The notes: generated by a model from the letters alone, not told the origin. A DNA stretch of 64,000 bases from Elusimicrobiales bacterium (GCA_028713125.1 JAQTOU010000002.1:206583-270582), one strand, 5' to 3'; positions 28,728-64,000 are shown, numbered from the stretch's first letter. Program-made: numbers and translations.

Positions 28728-28771
28728 TAGGCCCTTTGGCACTTTAAGGGTCAAGCGGCCTCCCCTATAAT
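28728..28771 (+). promoter_or_regulatory. Promoter with shared CCCTTTGGC box, site 1
   Basis: The box GGCCCTTTGGCA (28730-28741) is followed, 24 bases after TTGGCA, by a perfect TATAAT (28766-28771). The same arrangement occurs at three other places in the window (near 30691, 33145 and 34843). The start point near 28778 supports translation from the ATG at 28805. Confidence 0.55.
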
Positions 28772-28804
28772 ATACTCATGAAAGTAAAAGTCCGGGAGAC
28801 TTCA

Positions 28805-29773
28805 ATGCGCAAGCTTACAGCGGTCATTTCCCTTTTGCTTCTTTCTTCCTCCAGCCTCTGGGCCCAGCTTAACGTTTACTACATAAACGTCGGGCAGGGC
28901 GACGCGACTTACATCGAGCTGCCCAACGGCCATAACGTCCTGATAGACGGCGGCCCCTCCGGGGAGCCGGTGGGAAAATTCCTGAAGGAAAAAGGGATAA
29001 CCAAGATAGACCACGTCGTGCTTACCCACCCGCATAGCGACCACTACCGGGGCCTGAAAAAAGTCTTCGCGATGGTAGACGTGAAAAATTTCTACGATTC
29101 CCGGGCCGAGAACGTCGAGGCCAAAGGCGACAATAACCTGCGCGAACTGGCCGCCGCCGAGCCCAGCTGCAAGACCCATTACCCTGAAGCCGGCAGCAAC
29201 CTCAACTGGGACTCCCGCGTGACAGTAAAGGTCCTCAATACCTGCTCGGAACCCGTGCAGCTCAAATACAATGACGACGTGAATAACTGCTCGGTAGTTC
29301 TGCGCTTCTTTTACAACGGCACGGGCCTGCTGTTCACCGGCGACGCAGAAGCGCCCATAGAGAACGCCATGATGCGCATCTTCAAGTCCGGCCTTGAGTC
29401 CTACGCGCTGAAAGTCGGTCATCACGGCTCGCGCTATTCCTCCACCGACGGCTTCCTGGCCCGCGTCAAGCCAAAGATGGCTATAATTTCCGTGGGCGTG
29501 GACAATGTCTACGGCCATCCCCATAAAGAGGCCCTCGACCGCATCCGGGCGGCCGGCGCGAAGATCTTCTTCACCACCGGCGGGACGCAGACCCTGACCA
29601 TCCCAGCTCCCAGGAAAGGCGTGGAGCCCGTGATAGAGGGACTGGTTCCATATGATCCCGGCGCTCCCGTCCTTCCCCAGGTAGAGGCCGTTATCTACAG
29701 GCCGGAAGTTGAGGCGCCCGGTAACGTGAACGGGCCGGCCCTTGAACAGCTTGAGGAACAGGCCGCGGAGTAG
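28805..29773 (+). CDS. Secreted metallo-beta-lactamase-fold hydrolase (ComEC-like domain)
   Basis: The protein has 322 residues. A signal peptide (KLTAVISLLLLSSSSLWAQ) precedes a metallo-beta-lactamase domain: VGQGDATYIELPNG, metal-binding HPHSDH, later TGDAEAP and VGHHGSRYSS, then GHPH. This matches the C-terminal domain of ComEC, a nuclease-like module, and stand-alone secreted relatives. It probably hydrolyses a phosphodiester outside the cytoplasm. The ATG at 28805 is preferred over the one at 28778 because the -10 box would put 28778 at the transcript start, whereas 28805 has a GGGAG site and directly begins the signal peptide. Confidence 0.87.
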   Translation: MRKLTAVISLLLLSSSSLWAQLNVYYINVGQGDATYIELPNGHNVLIDGGPSGEPVGKFLKEKGITKIDHVVLTHPHSDHYRGLKKVFAMVDVKNFYDSRAENVEAKGDNNLRELAAAEPSCKTHYPEAGSNLNWDSRVTVKVLNTCSEPVQLKYNDDVNNCSVVLRFFYNGTGLLFTGDAEAPIENAMMRIFKSGLESYALKVGHHGSRYSSTDGFLARVKPKMAIISVGVDNVYGHPHKEALDRIRAAGAKIFFTTGGTQTLTIPAPRKGVEPVIEGLVPYDPGAPVLPQVEAVIYRPEVEAPGNVNGPALEQLEEQAAE

Positions 29774-29794
29774 TCCGAGCGCTTAAATCCCGGT

Positions 29795-29830
29795 AAGGCC
29801 GGTCAGGGGTTTTCCCCTTACCGGCCTTTT
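29795..29830 (+). terminator. Strong two-part terminator hairpin
   Basis: aaggccggt (29795-29803) pairs with accggcctt (29820-29828), and agggg pairs with cccct inside it, leaving a tttt loop. T residues follow. It closes the metallo-beta-lactamase gene. Confidence 0.85.
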
Positions 29831-29850
29831 CCATGGCCGAGAGTTTCAAC

Positions 29851-29879
29851 TTGCCACGAGCCCCCCATTGTCGCATAAT
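29851..29879 (+). promoter_or_regulatory. Promoter of the KGEK-repeat protein gene
   Basis: TTGCCA (29851-29856), 17 bases, CATAAT (29874-29879), within the longer string tgtcgcataatat that is also found in the promoter at 32080. Confidence 0.7.
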
Positions 29880-29921
29880 ATATGGACTGCCAACCGGCAA
29901 TGTATTTTTAAGGAGAATCAT

Positions 29922-30578
29922 ATGGTTAAGAAAGCAATTGCGGCCGCGGCGTTCATTTTAGGCCTGGGAATAAGCGTCTACGCGGAGGACCAGGCTGCCC
30001 AGCCGCAGGCCCAGACCGCAGTGCAGAACGAGGCGGCCGCTCCCGCCAATCCCGCGGACGTTAAGCCCGCCGAAGCCGCCCCCGAAGGCGGGGTTATGGG
30101 CTGGTGGCACAGGTTTCGCGGTAAAAAAGAGGAAAAGATAGAGAATGCCGGAGAGAAGAAAGAGGAAGCCGGGGTAAAGGCTGAAGAGAAAGGCGAAAAG
30201 ATGCAGGAGCAGGGCGAGAACCTTAAGGAAGCCGGCGAAAAACGCGAAGAGCGCGGCGAGCGGGCTGAGAACAAGGGCGAAAAGATGCAGGACCAGGCTG
30301 AAAAGATGGACGCGCAGTCAGAAAAGCAGCGCGCCAAAGGCAACGTTAAGGCCGCCAACAAGCTTGAACGCAACGCCGGCCGCAAAGAAAACCGCGGCGA
30401 GCGCCTTGAAAACAAGGGTGAAAAGATGCAGGAACAGGGCGAACATATGAAGGTCCGCGGGGAAAAGCGCGAGAAGCGCGGCGAGCGCATAGAAAAGAAA
30501 GGTGAAAAAAAGCAGGCTAAAGCCGGGCACGCTAAGAAGCGCGGCGGCAAAGGAAAAGGACACGGCAAGGGTAAATAG
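29922..30578 (+). CDS. Secreted highly charged repeat protein (KGEK repeats)
   Basis: The protein has 218 residues with a signal peptide (AIAAAAFILGLGISVYAED), an Ala/Pro/Gln region, a short GGVMGWWHRFRGKK element, then about 130 residues of degenerate 7- and 14-residue repeats built on KGEKMQEQGE, EKREERGERAEN and ENKGEKMQ. The tail is Lys/Gly/His-rich. The repeats should form long, highly charged helix or coiled coil. I know no named family. The ATG at 29922 is set by an aggag site and the signal peptide. It has its own promoter and terminator. A structural or cell-surface role, or binding to a polyanion, is an inference. Confidence 0.8.
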   Translation: MVKKAIAAAAFILGLGISVYAEDQAAQPQAQTAVQNEAAAPANPADVKPAEAAPEGGVMGWWHRFRGKKEEKIENAGEKKEEAGVKAEEKGEKMQEQGENLKEAGEKREERGERAENKGEKMQDQAEKMDAQSEKQRAKGNVKAANKLERNAGRKENRGERLENKGEKMQEQGEHMKVRGEKREKRGERIEKKGEKKQAKAGHAKKRGGKGKGHGKGK

Positions 30579-30593
30579 TTCCCGCCCCTCCCG

Positions 30594-30622
30594 AAAAAAG
30601 CCCGGTTTAACCGGGCTTTTTT
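30594..30622 (+). terminator. Intrinsic terminator
   Basis: aaaaaagcccggtt pairs with aaccgggctttttt around the short centre; the T-run ends at 30622. It closes the KGEK-repeat gene. Confidence 0.9.
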
Positions 30623-30690
30623 ATTGGCCGGGAACGGCTTTTTTCATGCGCTTTGCGGCTGAACCTGGCGGTCCAAAAAACAGGCGGCAA

Positions 30691-30735
30691 GTGGGTCCTT
30701 TGGGCCTGTCTGCCCGCGGTCCTTTATCGTAAGAT
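30691..30735 (+). promoter_or_regulatory. Promoter with shared CCTTTGGGC box, site 2
   Basis: TGGGTCCTTTGGGC (30692-30705) is followed after exactly 24 bases by TAAGAT (30730-30735), matching the spacing seen at the other three sites. The ATG at 30767 lies 31 bases further on. Confidence 0.5.
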
Positions 30736-30766
30736 ATAGTCACGGGGTTTGGAAGCGAGGACAGCT

Positions 30767-30967
30767 ATGACCGAAACATGCAACTTTGATAAAGACGACA
30801 ATGAGCGCCGCAAGAGCGATAAATTAATAGTCCGCGTCCCCGCCGGGAAGATCGCGGCCATCGACGTTCCCGACATGAAGCAGGTCAAGCACGGCGCCTA
30901 CCTTTGGAACCTGAGCCCGCGGCCCCGCTCCGGCAAGAGCTGGCGCGATATCTCTTCGATAAATTAA
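30767..30967 (+). CDS. Small hypothetical protein
   Basis: The protein has 66 residues: charged N-terminal part (NFDKDDNERRKSDKLIVRVP), then AGKIAAIDVPDMKQ and a basic tail ending SGKSWRDISSIN. There is no signal peptide or membrane helix. I do not recognise it. An upstream TTG is in frame, but the ATG at 30767 has a gagga ribosome site at the right distance. The promoter box upstream and the terminator downstream support it as a real gene. Confidence 0.6.
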   Translation: MTETCNFDKDDNERRKSDKLIVRVPAGKIAAIDVPDMKQVKHGAYLWNLSPRPRSGKSWRDISSIN

Positions 30968-31006
30968 ACGGCAGGAAGGAGCCCGGCTCCTTTAACGTGC
31001 GGACAT

Positions 31007-31044
31007 AAAAAAAGACCCGGTCTTTCGGCCGGGTCTTTTTTTTT
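31007..31044. terminator. Two-way intrinsic terminator
   Basis: aaagacccgg (31011-31020) pairs with ccgggtcttt (31029-31038), with A residues on one side and T residues on the other. It lies between two convergent genes and can end both. Confidence 0.9.
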
Positions 31045-31060
31045 GCCTGGTTAAAGCGGC

Positions 31061-31915
31061 TTATTTAGCCGTGGCGTTTATCCAGGTCAGCGCGGCGTTC
31101 ACTTTCGAGTAGACGCCGTACTTGTTGGGGCGGGCGCAGCCTTCTCCCCAGCTCACTACGCCGGCCAGCGCCATATTCGAGCCGCTGCCGGTGAACAGGG
31201 GGCCGCCGCTGTCGCCCTGGCAGGAGTCTTTGCCGCCTTCGGGGTAGCCCGCGCAGATCATGGAGCTGTCGAGGGCGCCGGGATAGGCCGCTTCGCAGGC
31301 TTCAGCGGTGACCAAAGGCACGGTCACTTTCATAAGGTTCTTGGAGATGCTCTGGGAACCTTCGCTGGTGGTGCCCCAGCCGGCGGTGACGAAGCTCACA
31401 TTGCCGGTGAGTTCCGTGGAGTTGAGGGCGATGGGGGCGAATTTGGAGTCGCCGCTGAGCTTCACCAGCGCGTAGTCGTTGAACATGGTGTTGGTGTCCC
31501 AGTTCGGGTTCTTCACTATCTGCAGCACGGTGAACTTCTCGGTGCCGGCGGTGACGCCCTGGGTGTTGAGGCCGACCACTACCGATTTAAGGTAGCCGCC
31601 TTCCACGCAATGGGCCGCGGTAAGCACCCAGTTCTTCTTTATAAGGGAGCCGCCGCAGAAATGGCTGCCGGAGCCGGTCTGCAGGGAAACGATGAAGGGG
31701 AATTCGCCCTTGGAGGCCTGCACGCCGCCTACTATCTTCGGGAAGCCGATCGGGGTGGAAAGATCCCTGTTCGGCACGCTGATCGCGGGAACCTCGAAGG
31801 TCCTGGCGACCGAGGGCAGGTTGAAGCTGCCGGGGTTGTTGAAATCCATGAGGGTGGCAGCGCTGCTGATGCCCGGCGTTACGGCCAGGGCGACCGCTAG
31901 TATCAGTTTTTTCAT
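31061..31915 (-). CDS. Secreted trypsin-like serine protease (S1 family)
   Basis: The protein has 284 residues with a signal peptide (MKKLILAVALAVTPGISSAA), a pro-region of about 40 residues and a mature start at residue 61 (K-IVGG), the classical zymogen activation site. The catalytic triad is His 102 (LTAAHC), Asp 147 (NDYALVKL) and Ser 236 (GDSGGP). Asp 230 in DSCQGDSGG predicts cleavage after Lys or Arg. Cysteines at the usual trypsin disulphide positions are present (HFCGGSL with AAHC). The likeness to animal trypsin is strong, as in the few secreted bacterial S1 enzymes of predatory and soil groups. It would be exported and activated outside the cytoplasm. Confidence 0.95.
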   Translation of the reverse strand: MKKLILAVALAVTPGISSAATLMDFNNPGSFNLPSVARTFEVPAISVPNRDLSTPIGFPKIVGGVQASKGEFPFIVSLQTGSGSHFCGGSLIKKNWVLTAAHCVEGGYLKSVVVGLNTQGVTAGTEKFTVLQIVKNPNWDTNTMFNDYALVKLSGDSKFAPIALNSTELTGNVSFVTAGWGTTSEGSQSISKNLMKVTVPLVTAEACEAAYPGALDSSMICAGYPEGGKDSCQGDSGGPLFTGSGSNMALAGVVSWGEGCARPNKYGVYSKVNAALTWINATAK

Positions 31916-32079
31916 TCAGTCCGTCTCCTAAAGGCTAGTATTGACTTCTGTCATCAGTTTCTCAAAATATTTGATTAATGTCAACAGAAAAATATAGGTC
32001 TAATGACACGGGCGTCCCTGGGCCGTTCGGCCTATTTCCCGGTGAATATGGAGGCTCCGTGTTTACCTGAATTAAAGCC

Positions 32080-32108
32080 TTGGCTAAAGCTTCTTTTTGT
32101 CGCATAAT
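32080..32108 (+). promoter_or_regulatory. Promoter of the PEBP gene
   Basis: TTGGCT (32080-32085), 17 bases, CATAAT (32103-32108), within tgtcgcataatat, identical to the -10 region of the KGEK-repeat gene. The other sequence between 31916 and 32163 holds the divergent protease leader; I see nothing else there. Confidence 0.65.
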
Positions 32109-32163
32109 ATCCGGGGGGGCGGGGCTGAAACAAAAGCGAGGTTAATAGACGGCCCGTTCAGTT

Positions 32164-32748
32164 ATGAATAAAAAACTGTTCATGTGCTGTATTTGCGCGT
32201 TTGCGGTATCCGCCGCGGCCCAAAGCGCCGGAAAAAAGCAAAATAAAGATGTTAAAGAGGCACGTAAAATGACTCTGACCGTAACCAGTCCCGCTTTCAA
32301 ACACAAAGCCTATATCCCCAAAAGGCACGCCTGCGGCGCCGAGGATGTATCGCCGGAATTAAAATGGTCCGGCCTGCCGGACGGCACGGGAAGCGTAGCC
32401 GTCATCATGGACGACCCGGACGCGCCTCCCGGGACCTGGGTGCACTGGATACTGTTCAATATCCCGCCTTCGGCCAAGGGGTTGAAGGAGAATGTCGCCA
32501 AGAAGGAAGTCCTGCCGGACGGCTCCAGGCATGGCCGTGTCTGGGGGGTGAACGAGGACGATTTCAGCCGCATAGGCTATTACGGGCCCTGCCCTCCTCC
32601 CGGGAAACCGCACCATTACTTCTTCAAAGTCTACGCTCTGGACAAGCTCCTTGACCTTCCCGCCGGGACGGCGAAGGGCGCACTGCTGAAAGCCATGGAG
32701 GGACATATCCTGGCCCAGGCCGAGCTGGTGGGGCTTTACAAAAGATAA
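32164..32748 (+). CDS. PEBP-family (YbhB/YbcL-like) protein, secreted
   Basis: The protein has 194 residues. An N-terminal hydrophobic stretch (KLFMCCICAFAVSAAAQSAG) looks like a signal or lipoprotein sequence. The rest is the phosphatidylethanolamine-binding / Raf-kinase-inhibitor-like fold: VTSPAFKHKAYIPKRHAC, LKWSGLPDGTGSVAVIMDDPDAP, WVHWILFNIPPS, then YYGPCPPPGKPHHYFFKVYALD. The anion-binding pocket residues DPDAP and GPCPP are present. The function of bacterial members is not settled. It is followed by a zinc-ribbon gene after 36 bases. Confidence 0.92.
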   Translation: MNKKLFMCCICAFAVSAAAQSAGKKQNKDVKEARKMTLTVTSPAFKHKAYIPKRHACGAEDVSPELKWSGLPDGTGSVAVIMDDPDAPPGTWVHWILFNIPPSAKGLKENVAKKEVLPDGSRHGRVWGVNEDDFSRIGYYGPCPPPGKPHHYFFKVYALDKLLDLPAGTAKGALLKAMEGHILAQAELVGLYKR

Positions 32749-32784
32749 ACCGTTTTCTCCGGGCTGCTTCCGGGAGGTTCTATT

Positions 32785-33147
32785 ATGGCTTATAAATTCA
32801 AATGCACTAAATGCGGCAAGGACATGATAGTCAGGTGGCTTAAGCCGGACGAGATGGCTTTGTGCCACAAATGCGGCACGAACGTAAAAGTCCCCGCTAA
32901 CGCGGCCGAGGTTGAGAACGATCTTTCGCCGCTTCCCGAGCCGGCGAAGAAAGAAGCGGACGCGGAAGTTTGCGCGAATAATTGCCCCGCCTGCGCTTTC
33001 GTGGAAAAGATAAACGCGGCCGAGTTCGAAGAAGCCCTGCCCATGGGGACCTTCGGAGCCTGCCACCGCTACCCGCCCGGCATAGAGGGCCGCTACCCGT
33101 TCGTGACCGCCGCCGACTGGTGCGGCGAGTACCAGCGCAGGGAATAG
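32785..33147 (+). CDS. Cys-rich zinc-ribbon protein
   Basis: The protein has 120 residues. The first 35 contain two Cys pairs (KCTKCGKD and LCHKCGTN) of a zinc ribbon. The second half contains CANNCPACAF, GACHRYPPG and DWCGEYQ, a Cys/His pattern seen in small proteins of unknown function (ACHRYPP with WCGE). It is probably cytoplasmic and metal-binding. A clear GGAGG site precedes the ATG. Confidence 0.75.
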   Translation: MAYKFKCTKCGKDMIVRWLKPDEMALCHKCGTNVKVPANAAEVENDLSPLPEPAKKEADAEVCANNCPACAFVEKINAAEFEEALPMGTFGACHRYPPGIEGRYPFVTAADWCGEYQRRE

Positions 33148-33188
33148 GCCCTTTGGCTCTTGCGGTTTTGCCTCCGGCCTACTAGAAT
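33145..33188 (+). promoter_or_regulatory. Promoter with shared CCCTTTGGC box, site 3
   Basis: TAGGCCCTTTGGCT (33145-33158) is followed after exactly 24 bases by TAGAAT (33183-33188). The first 13 bases are identical to site 1. The ATG at 33227 lies 38 bases downstream. Confidence 0.55.
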
Positions 33189-33226
33189 ATCCTTGCCGTA
33201 TATAAGGCCGCGTTCCTGGAGGCAAA

Positions 33227-34009
33227 ATGTTGCTTAGGCAGACAGCTTTTATCCTTCGCAGTTTTATCGCCGCTTTGATCCTGGCCGCCGGCTTCGCGCC
33301 CGCCGTTCATGCCGGAGAGGCCTTCTACTCCCTGCAGCCCCGAACCGTAAGCGTTAAGGCGCCGGAAGCGCCCGCCCCGGCCGCGGTAGCCGTCGAGCCC
33401 GCCCCGCGTTACCTCTCTCAGTCCGAACTTCAGATCTCCGGTTTCCCCGCCCCGCCCGCGATAGGCTCGGCCGAAGACAAGGCGGACCTGGCGGCGGTGC
33501 TGCAGTGGCAGAAAGACCGCACCGGGGCCCAGTGCGCCGCGGCCATGGCCCAGTCGGACGAAAGCTACCTTTCCCTTTTCGGCGGGGTAAACCCCTTCCC
33601 GGTCCCGCTGCCTCCCGAGGTCGGGGCTTTCTTCAAGCGCGTCGGCACTGAAACCGGAGACGCCGTCAGGAATATAAAGAAGACCTATAAGCGCGAGCGG
33701 CCTTTCGTGCGCTCGGCTGAAGTGCAGCCCTGCCTGGGCCGCGTGCAGGGCCTCTCCTACCCCAGCGGGCACGCCGCCGTGGCGCGCGTGTACGCGCTTG
33801 TGCTGTCGGGCCTGCTCCCGCGCCAGGGCGCTATTTTCAACCGCGCCGCCGACCAGGCGGCGCTTAACCGCGTAATAGGCGGCGTGCACCATCCCACCGA
33901 CGTGGAAGCCGGCAAGAAACTTGGAGAGCTGCTTTTCAGCAAGTTCCGCCAGAACCCGGCCTTCGCCGCAGATATGAGCGGCCTTTCCAAGTATCTCCGC
34001 CGTCAATGA
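33227..34009 (+). CDS. Secreted PAP2-family acid phosphatase
   Basis: The protein has 260 residues with a signal peptide at about 12-34 (FIAALILAAGFAPAVHAGE) and a Pro/Ala linker. The PAP2 phosphatase motifs are in order: KKTYKRERP, YPSGHAA, and NRVIGGVHHPTDVEAG, where the usual Ser-Arg of the third motif is Asn-Arg. This is the layout of class A non-specific acid phosphatases (PhoN type), which remove phosphate from many organic esters in the periplasm. It may instead act on lipid phosphates. The gene has its own box-type promoter. Confidence 0.9.
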   Translation: MLLRQTAFILRSFIAALILAAGFAPAVHAGEAFYSLQPRTVSVKAPEAPAPAAVAVEPAPRYLSQSELQISGFPAPPAIGSAEDKADLAAVLQWQKDRTGAQCAAAMAQSDESYLSLFGGVNPFPVPLPPEVGAFFKRVGTETGDAVRNIKKTYKRERPFVRSAEVQPCLGRVQGLSYPSGHAAVARVYALVLSGLLPRQGAIFNRAADQAALNRVIGGVHHPTDVEAGKKLGELLFSKFRQNPAFAADMSGLSKYLRRQ

Positions 34010-34052
34010 CGGACCCTGCCAGGAAAAGCGCCGCTCCTTCGGAGGACTGACT

Positions 34053-34769
34053 TTGGACCTCGAGCAGAAACAAGAACAATTCAACGCCGCGATGGAGCTG
34101 TACGAGAACAGGGCGGGCTACAAACTGTTCGGCAAGTTCATCGCGGCCGCTAATATCTCGCTTCAGGCTTTCCTGCTGCTGCGGGTCTTTAAACTTTCGA
34201 TAGGACCGGCCGGCCAGCTGGCTGCCATCGCCGGAGCTTACCTCCTGGCGGACTTCGTCAACGGCCTTGTTCATCTGTATGCGGACCATATGGACGACTA
34301 TCAGTCGGCATGGGGCCCGCTGACGGCCAATTTCCACCTGCATCACAAAAGGCCCAGGTACAAGGACAACAGCCTCCCTGTAATGTATTTCAACGAGAGC
34401 GGCTCCAAAGTGTGGCTGGTCCCGTGTCTTTGCGCGCTGGCCTGGCTGTCTGCCCGGCCGGGGGTAAACCCGGTCCTGCTTTATGCCCTTGTCTACGCCG
34501 GGATACTCTCCTCCGTAGCGGAAATTTCCCATTACCTCGCGCATAACTCCAATTCCCCGGCGGCGGCCTTACTGGCCCGGGCCGGCCTCCTGCTGGGGAA
34601 GAGGAGCCACGCCAGGCACCATCTCGAGGACAATGTGAGCTATACCTTCCTCAACGCTTTCACCGACCCGCTCGTGGACCTGATAGCGGCGAGATTCTAC
34701 ACCGGCTACAAGAACGGAACCGACCTCCACTACGCTAAATACACGCTCCCCATAGCTGACAGGGACTAA
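34053..34769 (+). CDS. Lipid desaturase of the CarF/PEDS1 (Kua/TMEM189) family
   Basis: The protein has 238 residues with several membrane segments. The His-rich motifs of the family are DFVNGLVHLYADH, NFHLHHKRP, HYLAHNS and RSHARHH, spaced as in the Kua / plasmanylethanolamine desaturase group. In animals and in myxobacteria (CarF) this enzyme makes the vinyl-ether bond of plasmalogens using a di-iron centre and oxygen. The start TTG at 34053 has a ggagga site; an ATG at 34092 would shorten the N terminus. It follows the phosphatase by 43 bases, so both may be on one message. Whether this host makes ether lipids cannot be told from the window. Confidence 0.85.
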   Translation: MDLEQKQEQFNAAMELYENRAGYKLFGKFIAAANISLQAFLLLRVFKLSIGPAGQLAAIAGAYLLADFVNGLVHLYADHMDDYQSAWGPLTANFHLHHKRPRYKDNSLPVMYFNESGSKVWLVPCLCALAWLSARPGVNPVLLYALVYAGILSSVAEISHYLAHNSNSPAAALLARAGLLLGKRSHARHHLEDNVSYTFLNAFTDPLVDLIAARFYTGYKNGTDLHYAKYTLPIADRD

Positions 34770-34842
34770 AGCTATATTGCGGACGGGAACTTCCCGCCTT
34801 CCCCCTGGTCCCAGCAAGATTCGGCAAAAAACGAGGCCGGGC

Positions 34843-34886
34843 TGGGCCCTTTGACTCTATTTGGGTTCTCGCTATTTTGGGAAAAT
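34843..34886 (+). promoter_or_regulatory. Possible promoter with shared CCCTTTGAC box, site 4
   Basis: TGGGCCCTTTGACT (34843-34856) is followed after 24 bases by GAAAAT (34881-34886). This is the weakest -10 of the four sites, but the box and the spacing are kept. The ATG at 34949 lies 62 bases downstream. Confidence 0.4.
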
Positions 34887-34948: not shown

Positions 34949-35578
34949 ATGAATAAAATTATCCTAGCAGTGCTCGCGGCAGTAGTAAGCTCCGGCGCCG
35001 TAAAAGCCGCCGAGCTGGAAAATATTAGCGCTAAAGATGTCGTTAAAATGGCGCAGGAAGCCCGGGTCGTGGTTCCTGAGCCGGAAACAGGCATCGTAAC
35101 CAAGGCGGCCAAGCCCATTACCGCCGATGTCGATTTTAAAAGCGCTCCTTTCGCCGAGCTGCTGGTAAATTCATTGAACGTAGCGCCTAAGCTCGTGGTG
35201 ATGGCCGGCGGCCAGAGCTATGTGTACAAGGTCGGCGCCGGCCTGACCTGCTACAAAAGCTTCGCCACCGATATCCACGTTCCCAACCAGCCCAATAAAG
35301 CTCATTTTTCCTGCGCTATCAGCCCGGCCGGCGGCTGGAAAGCCATGGGCATGGAGTCTTATGGCGCCGGCGACAACCGCGCTTTCTCCCTGGCCCTCTA
35401 TGCGGCCCTGAAAGTCAAAGAAACCAATGACGAAGGTATCAAGACCAGGTCTATAGAACTGGAGCGCCCTGACGGGGACGGCGGCACGGAGCGGAACCTC
35501 CTCTCCTGTATTAACCCCAGCGCCGAAATGGAAGCCATGGGGTTTCGCCCCACCTGCCAGCTGATCAACGGCCTGTAA
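34949..35578 (+). CDS. Secreted protein of unknown function
   Basis: The protein has 209 residues with a signal peptide (KIILAVLAAVVSSGAVKAAE). The mature chain has VDFKSAPFAELLVNSLN, then two similar Cys-containing segments, AHFSCAISPAGGWKAMGMES and LSCINPSAEMEAMGF, which may be a pair of internal repeats. I recognise no known domain. It has its own promoter box and terminator, so it stands alone. Confidence 0.75.
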   Translation: MNKIILAVLAAVVSSGAVKAAELENISAKDVVKMAQEARVVVPEPETGIVTKAAKPITADVDFKSAPFAELLVNSLNVAPKLVVMAGGQSYVYKVGAGLTCYKSFATDIHVPNQPNKAHFSCAISPAGGWKAMGMESYGAGDNRAFSLALYAALKVKETNDEGIKTRSIELERPDGDGGTERNLLSCINPSAEMEAMGFRPTCQLINGL

Positions 35579-49040: not shown

Positions 49041-52000
49041 CTAAACCACTCTGACCGCGAAATCTTTCATTTGGTAGATGACCAGGCCGTCGACTATCAG
49101 GAAGCCGTCGGCGCGGAGGATCTTGCGCTCGTCGTCGGCGCCTGTTATGGTGGCTTCTACGGTTACGAGTTTGTTTTTCTGGACGATCTGGCCGCGGTAG
49201 ATCCACTGGTGTTTTTCGTTCAGGGCCATGGCTTCGAAGCGGGAGCCGGGGGGGAGGTTATTCCACCTCTTTGCGGCGGCGACTTTTATTAAATTGATGA
49301 AGGACTCTAGGCCTAGGGAGCCGGGGCAGACGGGGTCCTGGTAGAAATGGGCTTTGAAGAACCATTCGTCGGGGTTGACTTTTTTGAGGCCGCGGAGGAA
49401 GCCCTGGTTCTTGGGGCCTCCTGCGGGTATATAGGTTTCTACGGAGTCGAGCATGATGAGCTTTTCGTCAGGGATGCCGGTGGCGGCGGCGAGGGGTAGG
49501 GCTTCGGCGCGCGCGAGTTCATCGGCCGCAGGCGTATGCCGGGCGGCGCCGCGGACGCCGAGCTGCTCGGAAAGGGATTTTTTCGAGAAGAAGCCGAACT
49601 GGGTTATTCCTTTGTAGACGGTAGTGCGGCCGCAGAGGACTTCCAGGTCGTAATCCTGTATTATCATCCCGCCGGACTGCGAGACTTTCGTTATTTTGAC
49701 TTTCGTGGTCAGGACGCCTGCGTCGGGAAAAACTTCGGCGTATTGGACGGCGGTCCCGCCCAGGTTCCTGAAGGAGAGGTCGGTGGGGCTGGTCAGGGCG
49801 CTGCCGAGGTAGGCCGCGAGCCAGCCGCAAGGCTGCAGGGCGACCTCGAGGAGCACGGCGAAGGGCATGGAGGTCTGGGCGCCGGACTTGAAATACCATT
49901 CGCCGGGAGGAACGTCGTATTCGGCCTCTATGGTTCCGCCGGCGGCGAGCTCCCACTGGCGGCAGTTCTCTATTTTGACTATGCGGTCGAGGAATTTATA
50001 AGGCGCGCCGGGGAGCCTGGCTATCACCCGCTCTGAATCGAAGATCTTATATTTGTCGCCGAAAGCTTCGGAGGGTTTTCCTACGGCGAAAGCGGTTATG
50101 CTTGCATTGTCGAAGATAGCCGACTTTGGCGCGGCGGACGTTTCCGCTCCGCGGCCTGTCCACAGGCGCTCAATTTCCTGCCGGTTCGTGCCGCCCATCT
50201 TTATGGACATGTCGTGGATATGGATGATGCGCTTGCCGTCGGCGTACATGAAAGCGTCGGCTATGGCGTAGGGGCTGCCGTCGCCGGCCTGGTAGCCTAT
50301 TTCTTTTACGATGATCTCGTACATCGCTTTCTTCGTGGAGGGGAGCACCTGCCCGCGGCATTCGAGGCGGCTGGTGACTCCGGGCACCGGCTCGTACCAG
50401 CAGCTGCCGGCCTCGGCCACCCAGCCCAGGCGCAGCAGGAAAATGCGGAAGGTGTGCAGGCAGCATTCGTACATCAGCGTGCCGGGCATCACATGGTCGT
50501 CTATGAAATGGCAGGCGAGATGCCAGTCGTCGGGATGGATATCCATCTCGCCCTGTATGCTTCCCAGCCCGTAGCGCCCGCCCCGCGGTGAAAGTTCCAG
50601 CACCCGGTCTACCAGCTTCATCCTGCCGCCGGGCAGCCCGAGGGGGCTGGCCAGGGGGAGGCCTTCGAAAGCGGGTCCGAAACATTCCGCGTACCTGCCT
50701 TCGCGCAGGGCCGCCACGGCGGCGTCGCTGAAAGACCCGGTCCCGCCGTCCATGGGCGAGGGGGCTTTCCAGCCCGCTGAAGTCACGCCGGGGGTCGGGG
50801 CGGTTTCTTCGTCCGTCAGCACCACGCCTTTGCCTTTGGCCAGCTCTTCGTCGGTGAAGAAGCCGGCGCAGCCTTTTTTCATGCTCAGGAGCGGCTTGCC
50901 GTCCACGGTGCTCTCGTAATTGAAGAAGAAAAGCCAGATGTCGCCGTGCTGCGCGAAGCGCTCGATATTGATATCGTAATGGATGACCTGGCCCGGGAGG
51001 GGCAGGCCCTGGTGGAAAGTTACTTCGGCGTCAAGCAGGCGGTAAACGGCCTTGCCCTTTGTGCGGTCGTCGATGCCGAGGTAGCCGCAGAGGAACAGGT
51101 CCGCCTGGCCGGCCTCGACGGCGATGCAGGTCGGGATGCGGCCGCAGTCCAGGTACCAGGACCCGGGTTTAACGTCATGCTCGGTGACCACTTTGCCAGA
51201 GGTCATGGAACCCGCTTCTCCGCGCACGCTCAGGATCCTGTCCACCAGCATCAGCGGCTCGTCCGGGAGTCTTACCCGGGTGGGATAAGTATCCGCCGAG
51301 GCGAATTTCGCGCCCAGGACTTTGGCGATAGAGCCTGTGGCGAATTCAAGGCACTGTTCGCGGGTCATGAAAACTTCCGCCGGAGCTTTTGCCTGCGGGC
51401 TGGTAAGGACCGGTGAAAGGGCTAAAACGGGAACAGGCATGGTTTCGCCCATGGAGTTCAGAAGCGTATTCTGGAAGGCTATGTTCTTTGACTGGATCTC
51501 GGTAAAATTATTTGACAGCCTTAAAAAGACTTCGTGAGCCCTGGCTTTAGCGGCGGTAGCGGCGGAAAAATTATGAAGGTAGGCCGGGGCGGAAGCCGGC
51601 TGAGCGGCCGGAGGGGAGGCCTGTCTGACGGCCGGAATTGGAGCCGGAGCGGTCTTAGGCGAGGTTTTAAGCGCCGGCGGCTGCGCCGGAGGAGGCAGGG
51701 AGGTGGCCGGGGCTTCGGCGACAGCTGCCCAGGCTTTGCCGGGCTGCCAGTTAAATTTTACAGGGGGCGGGACAGAGAGCGCGGCGCGCAGCATCGGTTT
51801 CTCAGGCGGCGCGTCCCGGTGGCCGGCCGCCATCGTCGCGCGCCCGTAAAGCGCTTCCAGGTCCACCGGGGCTCTCTCGGCTATTAGCCTGGCGAGCAGG
51901 CGCAGGATCGTTCCCGTTTCGCCCTGGTTCTTCACGCAGGCGGATTTAGCCAGGTGGGGCTGGGCGCCGAGGATCTTGTCTATCATCCTGGTGCAGGAGG

Positions 52001-55000
52001 CCTGCGGGCCGAGTTCTATGAAGACCCTGGCGCCGTCCTCGTAGGCGCGGCGCACCAGCGAGGGGAAATCGAGGCTGTGGATGGCTTGCGCCACTATCGA
52101 GTCGGCCGCGCTCTCGCGGGTGACTTCGTAGGCTTTCTTCCAGGCGCCGCTGTAAAAGCGGACGCCCGGCGGGGGAGTCGTAGGGAAGAGGTGAAGATCG
52201 CGGTATTTTTTTTCGACCAGCTTCGCCGCCGCGAAATGCACGGTGGAAACGCCCTGGAGCGGCAGGAAAACGCAGCCTAGCCCTTCAACGAGGGAGTTGA
52301 CCGCCTGCCTGTAGCCGCCCACGACGCATTCGAGCGGGGCGTTCACTATCAGCAGCGCCGCGCGCTCGGCGCCTTTTAAAGCCATGCGGACATTTTCAGC
52401 GGGGCGGTCTATCACGCCCAGGACCCAGTCCACCTTCTCGTCCTTCGGCATGTTCCAGAAGCGGCGGGCCACGTCGCACGGGCCGGCGAGGTCGCTTACG
52501 AAAAGGCTGGATTCGTTTATGCGCCTGAGCATCTCGTCGCGCGCGGTCCAGGTCCGCGTGGCGAAAAGCCCGGCCGTTTCGCCAAGGCTGTAGCCCACGA
52601 TGAAGGCGGGTTCCACGCCGAGGGCTCGCACCAGGTCGCTGACCGCCGCCCCGTGGGCCACCGAGCCGAAGATCATCGATTTATAATCGTCCACTATCTC
52701 CCGTTCGGTCTCCTCCTGCCAGCCGGCGTCCCAGATCAGCCGCCACGGCACAAAATAGTTCGGGACCAGCTGGCTGCGCAGATAGCCGTTCTCCGCGTCG
52801 AGGCGGCGGGGGATCTCCGGCCACTGGGTCCACAGCTCGCGGCCCATGCCTATGTACTGGTTTCCGGAGCCGGGGAAAACGAAAGCGATATTCTCCTTCC
52901 TCGCCTGCCCGGCGGGGGAGTAGAAGATCCTGTCGCGGAATAAAGTTTTATCGGGCGCGGCCCGGAGGCCGGTTTCGGCCGATTCGGCGAGGGACGCAAG
53001 TTCTTCCCGGCCGCGGGCGAGCAGGACGCAGGCGCATTTTTTCCCGGGCCGCGCGCCGGTATGGGCGAACCAGGCCCGGGCCAGCTTTTCAATATTGGCT
53101 CCGGGCGCCTGCCGGGAAAGCCAGGAGCGCAGGTCCCCCAGGCCGGCCAGTATCCCGGCGCAGTCGTCGTCCTCTAGGGAGAAGAGCGCTTCCTCGCGCG
53201 CCCCCAGCGGCTGGCGCCGCTCCAGGAGGGTCTGTTCATTGTCGGCGGCTATCTCCAGGCCCTCCATCACTACATGACCGCAATTGCCGTCGCGGCCCAG
53301 CGCGCTCACGCCGGCCCGGCGCGGGCCTTCGGCGCGGTTGCGCAGCCAGTATTGCGGCTGCAGCGGGATATGGAATCTTTTTTTTGCCCGGGCAAGTTCG
53401 GCCAGAGGGGAGATCTTCATCAGCGGCGGCAGGATCTCCTGGTAGAGAGCGAGCGCGGTCTTGACCACCCCCGCCAGTCCGCAGGCGGCGCCGGTATGGC
53501 CTATCACGGGCTTGGCCGAGCCCAGGGCGCAGGGCAGCTGGGCGGAGGAGATCCCGTAAAAATCCGTAAGCGCTTCCGCTTCCACCGAGTCTTCGGCCGG
53601 AGTTCCGCTGCCGTGGGTTTCGAGGTAGCCGATAGTGGACGGGTCTACCTGCGCTTCGCCGTAGGCCTCCCTGAGCGCGGAGGTGTAGGCCTGCGCGCCG
53701 GGAGCGTTCTTGTCGACTCCGCCCCCGGAGGCGAACCCCAGCCCCTTTATGACGGCGTAAACGCGGTTGCCGTCGCGGACGGCGTCATCGAGGCGCTTTA
53801 AAACAAGGGCGGCGGCGCCTTCGCCCGCGCAGGTTCCGGCGGCGGCGCCGTCGAAAGGCCGCGGGGCGGCACGGGGGGAGCCGGGATCAGCGGCGCGGGG
53901 GTCTCCGTCGATGGAGACCGCGCCTACGATGGCGGTGTCGAGCTCCCCGGCGCGCAGCGCCCTTACGCCGGCTTCGAGGGCCCGCAGGCCGGAAGTCTCC
54001 TCGCTGGAAATAGTGAAGCTGGGGCCTCCGACGTGGAATTCCCTGGCGATCCGGCTCGCGACTATGCCGCCCAGGGCGCCCATGGTGCGGTTCGCCGTAA
54101 GTTCCGGGCCGGCCATCTCGCGCAGCCCCGTCACAAGATCTTTTTCTTCTTTTTCGGAAAGGGTCCAGCCCTGCTCCGCGGCGTGCTTGCGCGCGGTCTC
54201 CAGCAGGGACCAGCGGAAATGGAAATTGGTCGTGTTCAGGTCGAGGCCGAGGCCGATAAAGACGCCGGCGTTCTCCAGGCCTTTCTCCCCGGGCGTGCTG
54301 TCGGCCACCGCCTTCGCGGCCACGTCGAGCATAAGCTGCTGCTGCGGCAGCATCTCCTCCAGCTCCCTGGGAGGGATCCTGTAGGCGTCCGCGGCTACTC
54401 CGACTTCGCGCAGGAAAAAGCCTTTATCCGCCTCGGGCAGGCCGCGGCGCCGCTCCGCGGGCAGCTCCGCCGGGAATCCAGCGGAGCCTCCCAGGACGGC
54501 CTCCTGGAATTCCCTCAGGCCGGCGAGCGAGCCGAAGCGGGCCTCCATGCCCACTATCGCCACAGGGGCGGGAGCGGCCGGAGCGGCTTTTACGGCGGGC
54601 AGCCGGGCCGCGGGCGAGAAAGTGCCGGCGTATTCTTCCACCAGCACATGGGCGTTTATGCCGCCGAAGCCGAAAGCGCTGACGGCGGCGCGGCGCGGCG
54701 TTTTGCTGTCGCGGGCGGCCCAGTCCTCGCAGACGCTCTGCACGCGGAAAGGGCTGCCTGCGATCTTTACTTTCGGCCCGGGCTTCGAGAAATTCGCGGT
54801 CGGGGGCAGGCTCTTGTTCTTGAAGGCCAGCAGGACCTTCATCATCCCGGCGGCGCCGGCCGCGGTGAGCAGGTGGCCGACATTGGACTTTACCGAGCCA
54901 AGCGCGCACTGGCCCGCGCTCCAGCCGCGTTCGCCCCAGAGAGTTTTCAGGCTTTCGACTTCCACGGGATCACCGGTAGGAGTCCCGGTGGCGTGGCACT

Positions 55001-55973
55001 CGATGAAATCTATCTGCGAAGGGGAGAGCCTGGCCTGGCGGTAGGCCGCGCGCATGGCGTAAAGCTGGCCGGCGGTATTCGGGGCCAGCAGGCTGCCGCC
55101 TATATCGTTGGAAAGGCCAATGCCGGTTATGACGCCGTAGATCTTGTCCCCGTCGCGCACCGCGTCGGAAAGGCGCTTGAGGATGAACATGCCGGCGCCC
55201 TCGCCCACTACCAGCCCGTCAGCGGCGGCGTCGAAAGGCGACGGCAGGCCGGAGGGGGAGAGCGCGCGCAGCTGTGAAAAGCCCATCTGGGTGTAGAGGC
55301 TGGCCGGGCGGGAGACGCCGCCGGTAAGCATGGCGTCGGCGCGGCCGGAGCGCAAAGCGTCGACGGCCAGCTTGATCGCGTAAAGCGAGGAGGCGCAGGC
55401 GGCGTCCAGCGTGAAGCTGCCGCCGGAGAGGCCGAGCGCGCGGGCTATGACCGCGCCGGGGAGGCCGGCGGCGCAGCGGTTGAGGGGATCCGTCTTTGTG
55501 TTTAAAGAGGTCAGGGTGCGGCCGAAAGCCGCCTTTTCGAAAGCCGGCAGCAGGGTTTCCCTGGCAAGGGCAGAAACCGAGTCCGTGGGGAGGACAATAT
55601 TGCCGATGATGACGCCGGTGCGGGCGCGGTTTATCTTTTTCTGGTCCGCGTCGTAGAAAGCCTGCTTTGCGGCGTGAAGGGCCAGGTGGAAGACCGGGTC
55701 GAGTTTCTCGATAAAGGTCTCGCGCAGGTCCAGCCCGGACGGGTCCAGCTTGAAATCCTCCACGAAACAGGCCTTAAGGGAATAGACCTTGTCCGGGGCG
55801 CCCTTCCGCGGGTCGAAGACGTCCGCGGGGGAAAGGCTCCAGCGGCCCGCCGGGGCGTCTTTAGCCGAGCAGGTCCCTTCGGAAATATTCTTCCAGAAGC
55901 GCGCAAGGTCGGGCGCGCCGGGGAAAATCCCCCCGGCGCCGACAATGGCTATGGGCTGCTGTTCGGTCATCAT
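49041..55973 (-). CDS. pfaC: PfaC-type polyunsaturated fatty-acid synthase: KS-CLF-AT-DH-DH
   Basis: The protein has 2310 residues. An active ketosynthase (Cys 193 in LDAACASSLY, then ECHATGTPTGD and KSNVGHLLTAAG) is followed by a chain-length-factor-like second ketosynthase from about 480 to 915, whose active Cys is replaced by Glu (FTISSEETSGL near 661). An acyltransferase follows with VGYSLGE near 1128, then an Ala/Pro linker with ALPP-type repeats at about 1400-1490. The last 750 residues are two FabA-like double-hotdog dehydratases; catalytic His motifs are in HFIDDHVMPG near 1823 and HFYQDPVCPG near 2211. In Shewanella the AT is a separate PfaB; this fusion matches myxobacterial Pfa3 without its final AGPAT. 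A second ATG is at 55970. Confidence 0.93.
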   Translation of the reverse strand: MMTEQQPIAIVGAGGIFPGAPDLARFWKNISEGTCSAKDAPAGRWSLSPADVFDPRKGAPDKVYSLKACFVEDFKLDPSGLDLRETFIEKLDPVFHLALHAAKQAFYDADQKKINRARTGVIIGNIVLPTDSVSALARETLLPAFEKAAFGRTLTSLNTKTDPLNRCAAGLPGAVIARALGLSGGSFTLDAACASSLYAIKLAVDALRSGRADAMLTGGVSRPASLYTQMGFSQLRALSPSGLPSPFDAAADGLVVGEGAGMFILKRLSDAVRDGDKIYGVITGIGLSNDIGGSLLAPNTAGQLYAMRAAYRQARLSPSQIDFIECHATGTPTGDPVEVESLKTLWGERGWSAGQCALGSVKSNVGHLLTAAGAAGMMKVLLAFKNKSLPPTANFSKPGPKVKIAGSPFRVQSVCEDWAARDSKTPRRAAVSAFGFGGINAHVLVEEYAGTFSPAARLPAVKAAPAAPAPVAIVGMEARFGSLAGLREFQEAVLGGSAGFPAELPAERRRGLPEADKGFFLREVGVAADAYRIPPRELEEMLPQQQLMLDVAAKAVADSTPGEKGLENAGVFIGLGLDLNTTNFHFRWSLLETARKHAAEQGWTLSEKEEKDLVTGLREMAGPELTANRTMGALGGIVASRIAREFHVGGPSFTISSEETSGLRALEAGVRALRAGELDTAIVGAVSIDGDPRAADPGSPRAAPRPFDGAAAGTCAGEGAAALVLKRLDDAVRDGNRVYAVIKGLGFASGGGVDKNAPGAQAYTSALREAYGEAQVDPSTIGYLETHGSGTPAEDSVEAEALTDFYGISSAQLPCALGSAKPVIGHTGAACGLAGVVKTALALYQEILPPLMKISPLAELARAKKRFHIPLQPQYWLRNRAEGPRRAGVSALGRDGNCGHVVMEGLEIAADNEQTLLERRQPLGAREEALFSLEDDDCAGILAGLGDLRSWLSRQAPGANIEKLARAWFAHTGARPGKKCACVLLARGREELASLAESAETGLRAAPDKTLFRDRIFYSPAGQARKENIAFVFPGSGNQYIGMGRELWTQWPEIPRRLDAENGYLRSQLVPNYFVPWRLIWDAGWQEETEREIVDDYKSMIFGSVAHGAAVSDLVRALGVEPAFIVGYSLGETAGLFATRTWTARDEMLRRINESSLFVSDLAGPCDVARRFWNMPKDEKVDWVLGVIDRPAENVRMALKGAERAALLIVNAPLECVVGGYRQAVNSLVEGLGCVFLPLQGVSTVHFAAAKLVEKKYRDLHLFPTTPPPGVRFYSGAWKKAYEVTRESAADSIVAQAIHSLDFPSLVRRAYEDGARVFIELGPQASCTRMIDKILGAQPHLAKSACVKNQGETGTILRLLARLIAERAPVDLEALYGRATMAAGHRDAPPEKPMLRAALSVPPPVKFNWQPGKAWAAVAEAPATSLPPPAQPPALKTSPKTAPAPIPAVRQASPPAAQPASAPAYLHNFSAATAAKARAHEVFLRLSNNFTEIQSKNIAFQNTLLNSMGETMPVPVLALSPVLTSPQAKAPAEVFMTREQCLEFATGSIAKVLGAKFASADTYPTRVRLPDEPLMLVDRILSVRGEAGSMTSGKVVTEHDVKPGSWYLDCGRIPTCIAVEAGQADLFLCGYLGIDDRTKGKAVYRLLDAEVTFHQGLPLPGQVIHYDINIERFAQHGDIWLFFFNYESTVDGKPLLSMKKGCAGFFTDEELAKGKGVVLTDEETAPTPGVTSAGWKAPSPMDGGTGSFSDAAVAALREGRYAECFGPAFEGLPLASPLGLPGGRMKLVDRVLELSPRGGRYGLGSIQGEMDIHPDDWHLACHFIDDHVMPGTLMYECCLHTFRIFLLRLGWVAEAGSCWYEPVPGVTSRLECRGQVLPSTKKAMYEIIVKEIGYQAGDGSPYAIADAFMYADGKRIIHIHDMSIKMGGTNRQEIERLWTGRGAETSAAPKSAIFDNASITAFAVGKPSEAFGDKYKIFDSERVIARLPGAPYKFLDRIVKIENCRQWELAAGGTIEAEYDVPPGEWYFKSGAQTSMPFAVLLEVALQPCGWLAAYLGSALTSPTDLSFRNLGGTAVQYAEVFPDAGVLTTKVKITKVSQSGGMIIQDYDLEVLCGRTTVYKGITQFGFFSKKSLSEQLGVRGAARHTPAADELARAEALPLAAATGIPDEKLIMLDSVETYIPAGGPKNQGFLRGLKKVNPDEWFFKAHFYQDPVCPGSLGLESFINLIKVAAAKRWNNLPPGSRFEAMALNEKHQWIYRGQIVQKNKLVTVEATITGADDERKILRADGFLIVDGLVIYQMKDFAVRVV

Positions 55974-62461: not shown

Positions 62462-62472
62462 GGTTTTTACCT

Positions 62473-64000
62473 TTAGGCGAAGTATCGGGACAGCTGGTCC
62501 CTTGTCTGCGGCTCCTGCCGCGCCAGCCGGGGATCTACGGCTATCCCCTGGCAGCGCAGCGCGTGCAGGCGGGTAAGGACCGCCGCACCGGCGAGTAAAT
62601 TGTGGGCGACCGTGACCGCGTCGCGGGCCTCGGGCTTCTCGAGGAAGGAGCCTTTTGCCCATTCGTTGAAAGCTCCCATCGCGGGGCCGCACCAGACCTG
62701 GTAATCAAGCTTGCGGCTTTCGTCCCCGGCCAGCGGCCAGCGGGAAGACTGGCCCAGGTACCAGCGGAACACCAGGGCCATTTTATATCTGGCTTCTTTA
62801 TCAGCGCGCTCGGCTTTCGCAGGGTCCCTGCGCATGAAATACTCGCGCGTGCTCTGCCAGATCTCTCCGAGCGGGGCGCGGAAATAATCCCTCTCCAGCG
62901 TGGCGCGTATGTCGGCGGGGAGCTCTTCAAAACTGTTATAGGCCCGGTAATAATCGTAAAGTTTGTTCGCTCTCATTGCGAACATCGTCCCGCGCTTCAG
63001 GACCTGGACCTTCACGCCCATCTCGAACATATCGGCGGCCGCGGCCATCGCGATGTCGGCCTGCTCCGCTTCGGCCAGGATCTTCTTGACCGCGGCGGTG
63101 GTTCCGGATTCCACGCAGGCCTGGTTCACCGAGCCGATGACCACATAGGCGGCGCCCATCATGAAAGCGGCGGCTGCCGCCTCCGGAGTGGCTATTCCGC
63201 CGCCGGCGCCGACACGCGGGGCCTGCGGATACAGGTAGCGCGCCTGCAGCCTGTCGCGCAGGGCTATCATGGTGGGGAGCAGGTTTATCAGGGGGCGATT
63301 GTCCGTATGCCCGCCTGAATCCCCTTCGGCGGTCACGTCTTCGGCGACCGGGATCCCGGAGGCCAGTTCGGCCTGTTCGGAGGTGAGCTCGCCGCGCGAT
63401 ACAAGCTCTTTTAAGAATTTATCCTCGGGCGGGGAGAAGAAGCGGGCGGCTACCTCGGTACGCGAAACTTTGCCTATCACGCGGTTGGGGGTTTCTATTG
63501 CCCCGGCGGAATTCCGGCGGATGCCGGCCGTCCGGAACCTGATCAGGGGGAGCGTAAGGTTGATGAAGGCGGAGGCTTCTATAAGGCGTACGCCGCGCCG
63601 CAGGTAGAGGTCGACCAGCGCGGTCTCGAGCGCGGACTCGGCCGGGCTGTGGATAAGGTTGAAGCCGCAGTTGAAGGCGGGACCGGACTGTACCCGGTCT
63701 ATGGCTTTTTCTACTTCCTCGAGGGGCTGGCCTGCGGCGCCGTAGAAGCCCAGCATGCCGGCCCGGCCCAGCGCTTCCGCAAGCTGCGTGGAACTGATGC
63801 CATTCGCCATGGAGCCGCCGACATAGGCGTATTTCAGGTTATGCGCCCTGAGAAAGCACGGATCGCCCAGGTTTTGCGGGCGGCAGGCCGGGATAACCGC
63901 CGTCGGGGAGGAAAGGCCGGGGGTTAAAGCCAGGTTCCCGGCGGCGCCGCCCAGGGAGAAAGGCGTAAAAATATCGCGCAGGGAGGCCAGCGCTTCCGCC
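62473..64000 (-). CDS. pfaD: PfaD-type trans enoyl reductase, 5' end cut by window
   Basis: The frame is open from the right edge; 508 residues are visible, and residues before the first in-frame ATG at 63810 are clearly part of the family (LGDPCFLRAHNLKYAYVGGS joins MANGISSTQLAEALGRAGML). PfaD is an FMN-dependent enoyl reductase of the nitronate-monooxygenase type that acts in trans on the PfaA carriers. The FMN-phosphate region is seen in RVGAGGGIATPEAAAAAFMM and VIGSVNQACVESGTT. The family length is about 540, so only a few dozen residues are missing. It is the first known gene of the pfa-ole row, in contrast to Shewanella, where pfaD follows pfaC. Confidence 0.95.
   Translation of the reverse strand, partial: AEALASLRDIFTPFSLGGAAGNLALTPGLSSPTAVIPACRPQNLGDPCFLRAHNLKYAYVGGSMANGISSTQLAEALGRAGMLGFYGAAGQPLEEVEKAIDRVQSGPAFNCGFNLIHSPAESALETALVDLYLRRGVRLIEASAFINLTLPLIRFRTAGIRRNSAGAIETPNRVIGKVSRTEVAARFFSPPEDKFLKELVSRGELTSEQAELASGIPVAEDVTAEGDSGGHTDNRPLINLLPTMIALRDRLQARYLYPQAPRVGAGGGIATPEAAAAAFMMGAAYVVIGSVNQACVESGTTAAVKKILAEAEQADIAMAAAADMFEMGVKVQVLKRGTMFAMRANKLYDYYRAYNSFEELPADIRATLERDYFRAPLGEIWQSTREYFMRRDPAKAERADKEARYKMALVFRWYLGQSSRWPLAGDESRKLDYQVWCGPAMGAFNEWAKGSFLEKPEARDAVTVAHNLLAGAAVLTRLHALRCQGIAVDPRLARQEPQTRDQLSRYFA

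What the first reader, a model, noticed from the sequence alone, without database searches (positions are those of the whole stretch)
28728..34886. A shared promoter architecture: CCCTTTGRC box, 24 bases, -10 hexamer
Four gene starts (28728, 30691, 33145, 34843) carry T(A/G)GG(C/T)CCTTTG(G/A)(C/G) followed, exactly 24 bases after the TTGGCA-like end, by TATAAT, TAAGAT, TAGAAT or GAAAAT. Ordinary -35 boxes sit at 16-18 bases. The extra distance would put the box just upstream of a weak -35, as for an activator site, or would mark an unusual sigma factor. Three of the four target genes encode secreted proteins (metallo-hydrolase, phosphatase, unknown).
Basis: seen in the sequence. Interest (0 to 1): 0.62.

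Follow-up and report, generated by a model that had tools for sequence, protein, structure and literature searches.

The report
Elusimicrobiota activator box for secreted-protein genes
The four sites are real promoters sharing a binding box, most likely for a LiaR/NarL-type response regulator, that sits just upstream of the RNA polymerase site and marks a large, previously undescribed set of mostly secreted-protein genes across much of the phylum Elusimicrobiota.

Summary
All four sites have the box exactly 24 nt before a TANNATAT-type -10. The strict pattern occurs only five times in the 3.48-Mb genome, four of them here, and 60 shuffled windows never reach the scores given by a matrix trained in another family. 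The box is not a -35 of an odd sigma factor. The true -35 is a weak TTG-like hexamer 17 nt from a housekeeping -10, and the box (TRGGYC-N4-GRCNCT, centre -42.5) abuts it: class II activator geometry. A second copy often lies 23-24 bp upstream. The 16-bp repeat resembles T(N4)C(N4)G(N4)A, the published motif of LiaR/VraR response regulators. The architecture is essentially confined to Elusimicrobiota (178 of 285 genomes); about 30 sites in a genome matching Elusimicrobium minutum in size precede genes of which 23/26 encode signal-peptide proteins. A VraR-like response regulator, encoded beside a Cache-domain histidine kinase and a receiver-kinase hybrid, co-occurs with the box (39 of 40 box-bearing genera) and has a nearly invariant recognition helix. 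CRP-type regulators and a second NarL-type clade do not fit. I found no published description. The activator-site reading is strong; the regulator's identity is inferred.

The parts
28728..28743 (+). Proximal activator box 1, TAGGCCCTTTGGCACT
   Evidence: E 1.4e-10; 34.5 bits
28712..28727 (+). Possible second box abutting box 1, TTTGCCTATAGACCTA (fits T-N4-C-N4-G-N4-A; 16 rather than 24 bp from box 1)
   Evidence: offset -16 class; weak on its own
28743..28748 (+). Weak -35 hexamer TTTAAG, 17 nt from the -10
   Evidence: sequence; logo
28766..28771 (+). -10 TATAAT (continues TATAATAT)
28805..29773 (+). Target 1: secreted metallo-beta-lactamase-fold hydrolase (ComEC-like)
   Evidence: Pfam PF00753 1.4e-19; signal peptide
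30692..30707 (+). Proximal activator box 2, TGGGTCCTTTGGGCCT
   Evidence: E 8.3e-12
30669..30684 (+). Degenerate upstream box of site 2 (CGGTCCAAAAAACAGG), offset -23
30730..30735 (+). -10 TAAGAT (continues TAAGATAT)
30767..30967 (+). Target 2: 66-aa protein CNFDKDD...KHGAYLW...RSGKSWR, no Pfam match, conserved with its box in many relatives
33145..33160 (+). Proximal activator box 3, TAGGCCCTTTGGCTCT (overlaps the stop codon of the upstream gene)
   Evidence: (E 1e-8)
33183..33188 (+). -10 TAGAAT (continues TAGAATAT)
33227..34009 (+). Target 3: secreted PAP2-family phosphatase
   Evidence: PF01569 2.4e-10
34843..34858 (+). Proximal activator box 4, TGGGCCCTTTGACTCT
   Evidence: E 2.4e-8
34819..34834 (+). 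Degenerate upstream box of site 4 (TTCGGCAAAAAACGAG)
34881..34886 (+). -10 GAAAAT (continues GAAAATAT; weakest of the four)
34949..35578 (+). Target 4: secreted protein of unknown family (209 aa)
31995..32034 (-). Possible fifth, weaker member: two boxes exactly 24 bp apart (TAGGCCGAACGGCCCA at 32034-32019, CGTGTCATTAGACCTA at 32010-31995) upstream of the secreted trypsin-like protease 31915-31061; -10 poor
   Evidence: (12.4 bits, inside the shuffle range); low confidence

Best explanation
The box is the operator of a DNA-binding activator, most likely a LiaR/VraR-type (NarL/FixJ family) response regulator, here called X. X would bind as a dimer to a 16-bp inverted repeat, TRGGYC-N4-GRCNCT, centred at -42.5 and abutting a weak -35, usually with a second dimer 23-24 bp upstream. 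From there it would recruit the housekeeping RNA polymerase to a good TANNATAT -10 (class II activation). X (REC plus GerE, own copy G000:C35:217525) is encoded beside a Cache-domain histidine kinase and a receiver-kinase hybrid, so an external signal relayed by phosphorylation would switch on many genes for secreted hydrolases and other exported proteins. Shown here: the box, its fixed spacing, its conservation, the target bias, and the co-occurrence of X. Inferred: binding by X, activation rather than repression, the phosphorelay and the signal.
For: Fixed spacing of 22 (40/52) or 21 (6/52) nt to the -10. Logo with box at -50 to -35, TTG-like -35, TANNATAT -10. Upstream copy above the 95% null in 57% of 67 sites, concentrated at offsets -23 to -25. 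Ordinary TTGACA promoters in the window share the -10. 28 of 30 fetched own-genome hits intergenic. Signal peptides in 23/26 targets against 15/39 background in G033 and 21/28 against 14/64 in the own genome. Box in 178 of 285 phylum genomes and nearly absent from other families. X in 170 of those 178; genus table 39/1/8/43, Fisher 2e-16. GerE recognition helix nearly invariant across box-bearing families. Best PDB matches of X are VraR, 3.8e-38. The box resembles T(X)4C(X)4G(X)4A, the LiaR motif reported in PMC7191749. Conserved kinase / hybrid kinase / X order in two families.
Against: Eight box-bearing genomes lack a detected X, including G011 (99% complete), G131, G128 and G112; MAG gaps may explain this. 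Twelve genomes have X but no box hit, several with weak X matches. X and box share one clade history, so co-occurrence is not many independent events. Other regulator families (OmpR, TetR, AraC, MarR and so on) were not profiled. X and Y genes carry no box themselves. The proximal box ends in CT, not the A of the T-N4-C-N4-G-N4-A frame, and an 8-bp direct repeat scores at least as high as the dyad for that box alone. No binding or expression data.
Confidence: 0.72

Rival explanations
1. The box is the operator of an activator of another family, for example CRP/FNR (also class II at about -41.5, 16-bp palindrome) or a regulator not profiled here.
For: The geometry (-42.5, dyad) also fits CRP/FNR class II sites; only GerE and Crp HTH families were profiled.
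Against: No Crp HTH above the Pfam cut-off in nearly all f2 genomes, although they carry many boxes; G030 has none at all. The second NarL-type clade Y is missing from 18 of 40 box genera. X fits better and its relatives use the same 16-bp frame.
Confidence: 0.2
2. The box is the -35 element of an alternative sigma factor with an unusually long spacer.
For: The 24-nt spacing is fixed and the box is highly conserved.
Against: The -10 equals that of ordinary TTGACA promoters in the same window; a TTG-like hexamer lies at the normal 17-nt spacing; the element is 16 bp with dyad character and a displaced second copy. Sigma-54 is reported absent from E. minutum (PMC3162934).
Confidence: 0.05
3. The box is a repressor operator overlapping the -35 rather than an activator site.
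For: Position -50 to -35 can also block polymerase; a LiaR-type regulator is reported to repress a target, hrcA in S. mutans (PMC4447274).
Against: The -35 is weak and the box-to--10 spacing is rigid, which an activator needs and a repressor does not.
Confidence: 0.1
4. Chance similarity, or one local duplication of a promoter within the 6-kb cluster.
For: Four of the five strict genome hits lie here.
Against: A matrix from another family finds the same four; the targets are unrelated families; the architecture recurs across the phylum.
Confidence: 0.01

Closest known systems
E. coli NarL at the ogt and yeaR-yoaG promoters (tandem 7-2-7 sites)
   Same: Inverted-repeat 7-2-7 type sites; one abuts the -35 (centre -44.5) and a second lies upstream; NarL alone suffices (PMC7419079).
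   Different: NarL centres are -44.5 and -77.5 (33 bp apart), here -42.5 and about -66 (23-24 bp apart); half-site sequence differs; here the targets are mostly secreted-protein genes.
LiaR / VraR / CesR cell-envelope response regulators of Bacillota
   Same: 16-bp inverted repeat T(X)4C(X)4G(X)4A with primary and secondary sites (PMC7191749; CesR TCAGHCTnnAGDCTGA in PMC4447274); VraR is the closest solved relative of X.
   Different: GG/CC-rich half-site TRGGYC; proximal copy ends in CT; partner is a Cache-domain kinase plus a receiver-kinase hybrid; regulon is broad and mostly exported proteins; PliaI primary site lies at -76 to -52.
CRP/FNR class II promoters
   Same: Palindromic site centred near -41.5 overlapping a weak -35 (general knowledge).
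   Different: Half-site not TGTGA or TTGAT; Crp HTH proteins not detected above cut-off in most box-rich f2 genomes.

Membership tests
Operator of a LiaR/VraR-type (NarL/FixJ) response regulator | 16-bp inverted repeat T-N4-C-N4-G-N4-A | tested here: inconclusive
   Proximal box keeps T (91%), C (100%), G (97%) but ends in T (94%), not A; many upstream copies fit fully, e.g. TAGGCCCTAGGGCCTA in L053. Motif from PMC7191749.
Operator of a LiaR/VraR-type (NarL/FixJ) response regulator | Site next to or upstream of the -35 with a secondary site | tested here: met
   Centre -42.5; second copy mostly at offset -23 to -25
Operator of a LiaR/VraR-type (NarL/FixJ) response regulator | Cognate REC+GerE regulator present wherever the box is | tested here: inconclusive
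   170 of 178 box genomes, 39 of 40 genera; eight genomes without it
Operator of a LiaR/VraR-type (NarL/FixJ) response regulator | Phosphorylation-dependent binding to the box | not testable with these tools
   Needs EMSA or footprinting
LiaR/VraR proteins (X as a member) | REC and GerE domains, closest sequence relatives LiaR/VraR | tested here: met
   PF00072 4e-31, PF00196 1.9e-20; VraR best in PDB, 3.8e-38
LiaR/VraR proteins (X as a member) | liaF gene and LiaS/VraS-type kinase in the operon | tested here: not met
   Neighbours are a dCache-HAMP-HisKA kinase and a REC-HisKA hybrid; no liaF seen among the neighbours
Alternative sigma promoter | -10 element different from the housekeeping one | tested here: not met
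   Same TANNATAT as TTGACA promoters of the window
Sigma-54 promoter | TGGCAC-N5-TTGC at -24/-12 | tested here: not met
   No GC-type -12 element in the logo; TANNATAT -10 instead
CRP/FNR operator | A CRP/FNR regulator in box-bearing genomes | tested here: not met
   Only one of 16 f2 genomes has a match above cut-off; G030 has none

The most novel reading that the evidence does not exclude
A single two-component response regulator, conserved across one large clade of Elusimicrobiota, is a dedicated master activator of the exported proteome: it uses paired operators at -42.5 and about -66 with rigid spacing and responds to an external ligand through a Cache-domain kinase and a hybrid kinase.
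Probability: 0.5. Interest if true: 0.68.

Novelty: new member of a known kind. Interest (0 to 1): 0.56.

Why it matters
I found no published regulon or regulatory motif for Elusimicrobiota. This gives a concrete operator, a candidate regulator with its kinases, and a list of some 30 target promoters in what appears to be the cultured Elusimicrobium minutum, so the control of secreted hydrolases in a poorly known phylum becomes directly testable. The box can also be used to predict exported-protein genes of unknown family, of which most E. minutum targets are examples.

Tried and rejected
Reading the box as a -35 at 24 nt: rejected because a TTG-like hexamer sits at 17 nt and the -10 is the ordinary one. 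Sigma-54: no -24/-12 signature. CRP/FNR: regulator missing from box-rich genomes. NarL-type clade Y, at first attractive because its gene lies 5-10 kb from box promoters in some genomes: missing from many box-rich genomes. Clade Z: not found in f2. Autoregulation of X or Y: no box upstream. An exact 16-bp palindrome scan of the window is hardly above chance (16 against 9.6), so a lone palindrome is not evidence; only the box with its spaced -10 is.

Full report
OBSERVATION. The four sites are exactly as described. Box starts are 28728, 30692, 33145 and 34843; from the end of CCTTTGRNN there are 24 nt to TATAAT, TAAGAT, TAGAAT and GAAAAT. They lie 75-106 nt upstream of start codons at 28805, 30767, 33227 and 34949. 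A pattern with 2 mismatches finds only these four in the window (expected 0.45). In the whole 3.48-Mb genome the strict pattern has five hits, four here, and the longer pattern with 3 mismatches 18 hits against none for the reversed control. To avoid circularity I trained a matrix only on sites of another family (f2) and scanned this window: the four sites score 34.5, 34.5, 25.7 and 25.5 bits; the best score in 60 dinucleotide shuffles is 18.5.

WHAT IT IS. In 32 genomes of the same genus a pattern allowing 7-37 nt between box and -10 gave 52 hits, 40 at 22 nt and 6 at 21 nt, counted from the end of the ..CT. Many precede orthologous genes: secreted metallo-beta-lactamase-fold hydrolases and a 66-aa protein. 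An exact scan of 84,980 species returned 35 stretches, one in Legionella (no plausible target, probably chance); most of the others are titled Elusimicrobia, Elusimicrobiota or Elusimicrobium, and a few are unnamed bacterial MAGs. The logo of 67 sites gives TRGGYCCTTTGRCNCT at -50 to -35, a weak TTG/TGG/TAT at the -35 position 17 nt from the -10, TANNATAT at -10, and a second region of conservation upstream. That region is a second copy: in 57% of sites a copy scores above the 95% null, concentrated at offsets -23 to -25, in either orientation. Some are perfect palindromes, such as TAGGCCCTAGGGCCTA in L053. In the size-matched E. minutum genome the consensus is an inverted copy followed by TAGGNCTTTTGRCCCTTG. 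For the proximal box alone the dyad and an 8-bp direct repeat both score, so the palindrome claim rests mainly on the upstream copies. In the window the upstream copies are degenerate (sites 2 and 4), displaced (site 1) or absent (site 3).

WHY NOT A SIGMA FACTOR. Ordinary promoters in the same window, for example TTGACA-N16-TATAATAT at 42943 on the minus strand, use the same -10. The -35 of the box promoters is only weak, and the box lies where class II activators bind.

TARGETS. A sequence-only covariance model (R1) finds 69 hits at E<=1 in the own genome; 28 of 30 fetched hits are intergenic. With a crude hydrophobicity rule for signal peptides, 21 of 28 own targets and 23 of 26 targets in G033 carry one, against 14 of 64 and 15 of 39 background genes (Fisher 4e-6 and 8e-5). 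G033 is a single contig of 1,643,562 bases; I take it to be Elusimicrobium minutum from its size, which is from memory. Own-genome targets include clostripain-type (C11) and M14 peptidases, an Endonuclease I, a PAP2 phosphatase, metallo-beta-lactamase-fold hydrolases and a protein with an ADP-ribosyltransferase exoenzyme domain; most G033 targets scanned match no Pfam family.

THE REGULATOR. GerE-domain (NarL/LuxR) regulators are in 41 of 41 relatives, with only two in several small f2 genomes; Crp HTH proteins above the cut-off are absent from nearly all f2 genomes. A tree gives two widely conserved GerE clades, X and Y. Over 285 phylum genomes the box (E<=0.01) is in 178 and X in 182, both in 170; by genus the table is 39 both, 1 box only, 8 X only, 43 neither. 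Y is missing from 18 of 40 box genera. Box hits are nearly absent from families without strong X (f3-f8 and other classes), which also serves as a negative control for the model. The X recognition helix (KTxKNHLNxxFxKL) is nearly invariant over box-bearing families. X is REC plus GerE, its best solved relatives are VraR, and the published LiaR motif T(X)4C(X)4G(X)4A (PMC7191749) has the same 16-bp frame. In two families X lies beside a dCache-HAMP-HisKA kinase and a receiver-HisKA hybrid.

LIMITS. Co-occurrence follows one clade, so it is fewer than 40 independent events. Eight box genomes lack a detected X, four of them at least 90% complete. Only two regulator families were profiled. Binding, activation, phosphorelay and signal are inference. 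E-values from the model are rough by the tool's own statement.

COMPARISON. The closest described architecture is NarL at ogt, with 7-2-7 sites at -44.5 (abutting the -35) and -77.5 (PMC7419079). This case works like it, with closer sites and a different half-site. It is best filed as a new regulon and operator of the LiaR/NarL kind, not a new kind of promoter.

Noticed in passing
window 31995-32034, minus strand: Two box-like 16-mers exactly 24 bp apart upstream of the secreted trypsin-like protease gene; a possible fifth regulon member in the same cluster, with a poor -10.
   Followed up: partly
window 29868-29881 and 32097-32110: Two promoters between the box promoters share TTGTCGCATAATAT; not tested against the genome.
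   Followed up: no
window 49041-55973 and 56042-62692, minus strand: Two giant proteins (2310 and 2216 aa) with ketoacyl synthase, acyltransferase, ACP repeats and FabA-like domains: polyketide / polyunsaturated fatty acid synthase-like.
   Followed up: partly
window 29922-30578: Secreted low-complexity E/K-rich repeat protein between box targets, without Pfam match.
   Followed up: no
L132:1576-2397 (own genome, C14): Box target with a signal peptide and an ADP-ribosyltransferase exoenzyme domain (PF03496, 4.7e-11).
   Followed up: no
L131:1640-1987 (own genome, C26): Box target that is a stand-alone response regulator receiver (116 aa), one of the few non-secreted targets.
   Followed up: no
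L222 and L223, next to X: Genes downstream of X look like TadE/TadG-type pilus proteins in both families, judged by eye only (no Pfam match).
   Followed up: partly
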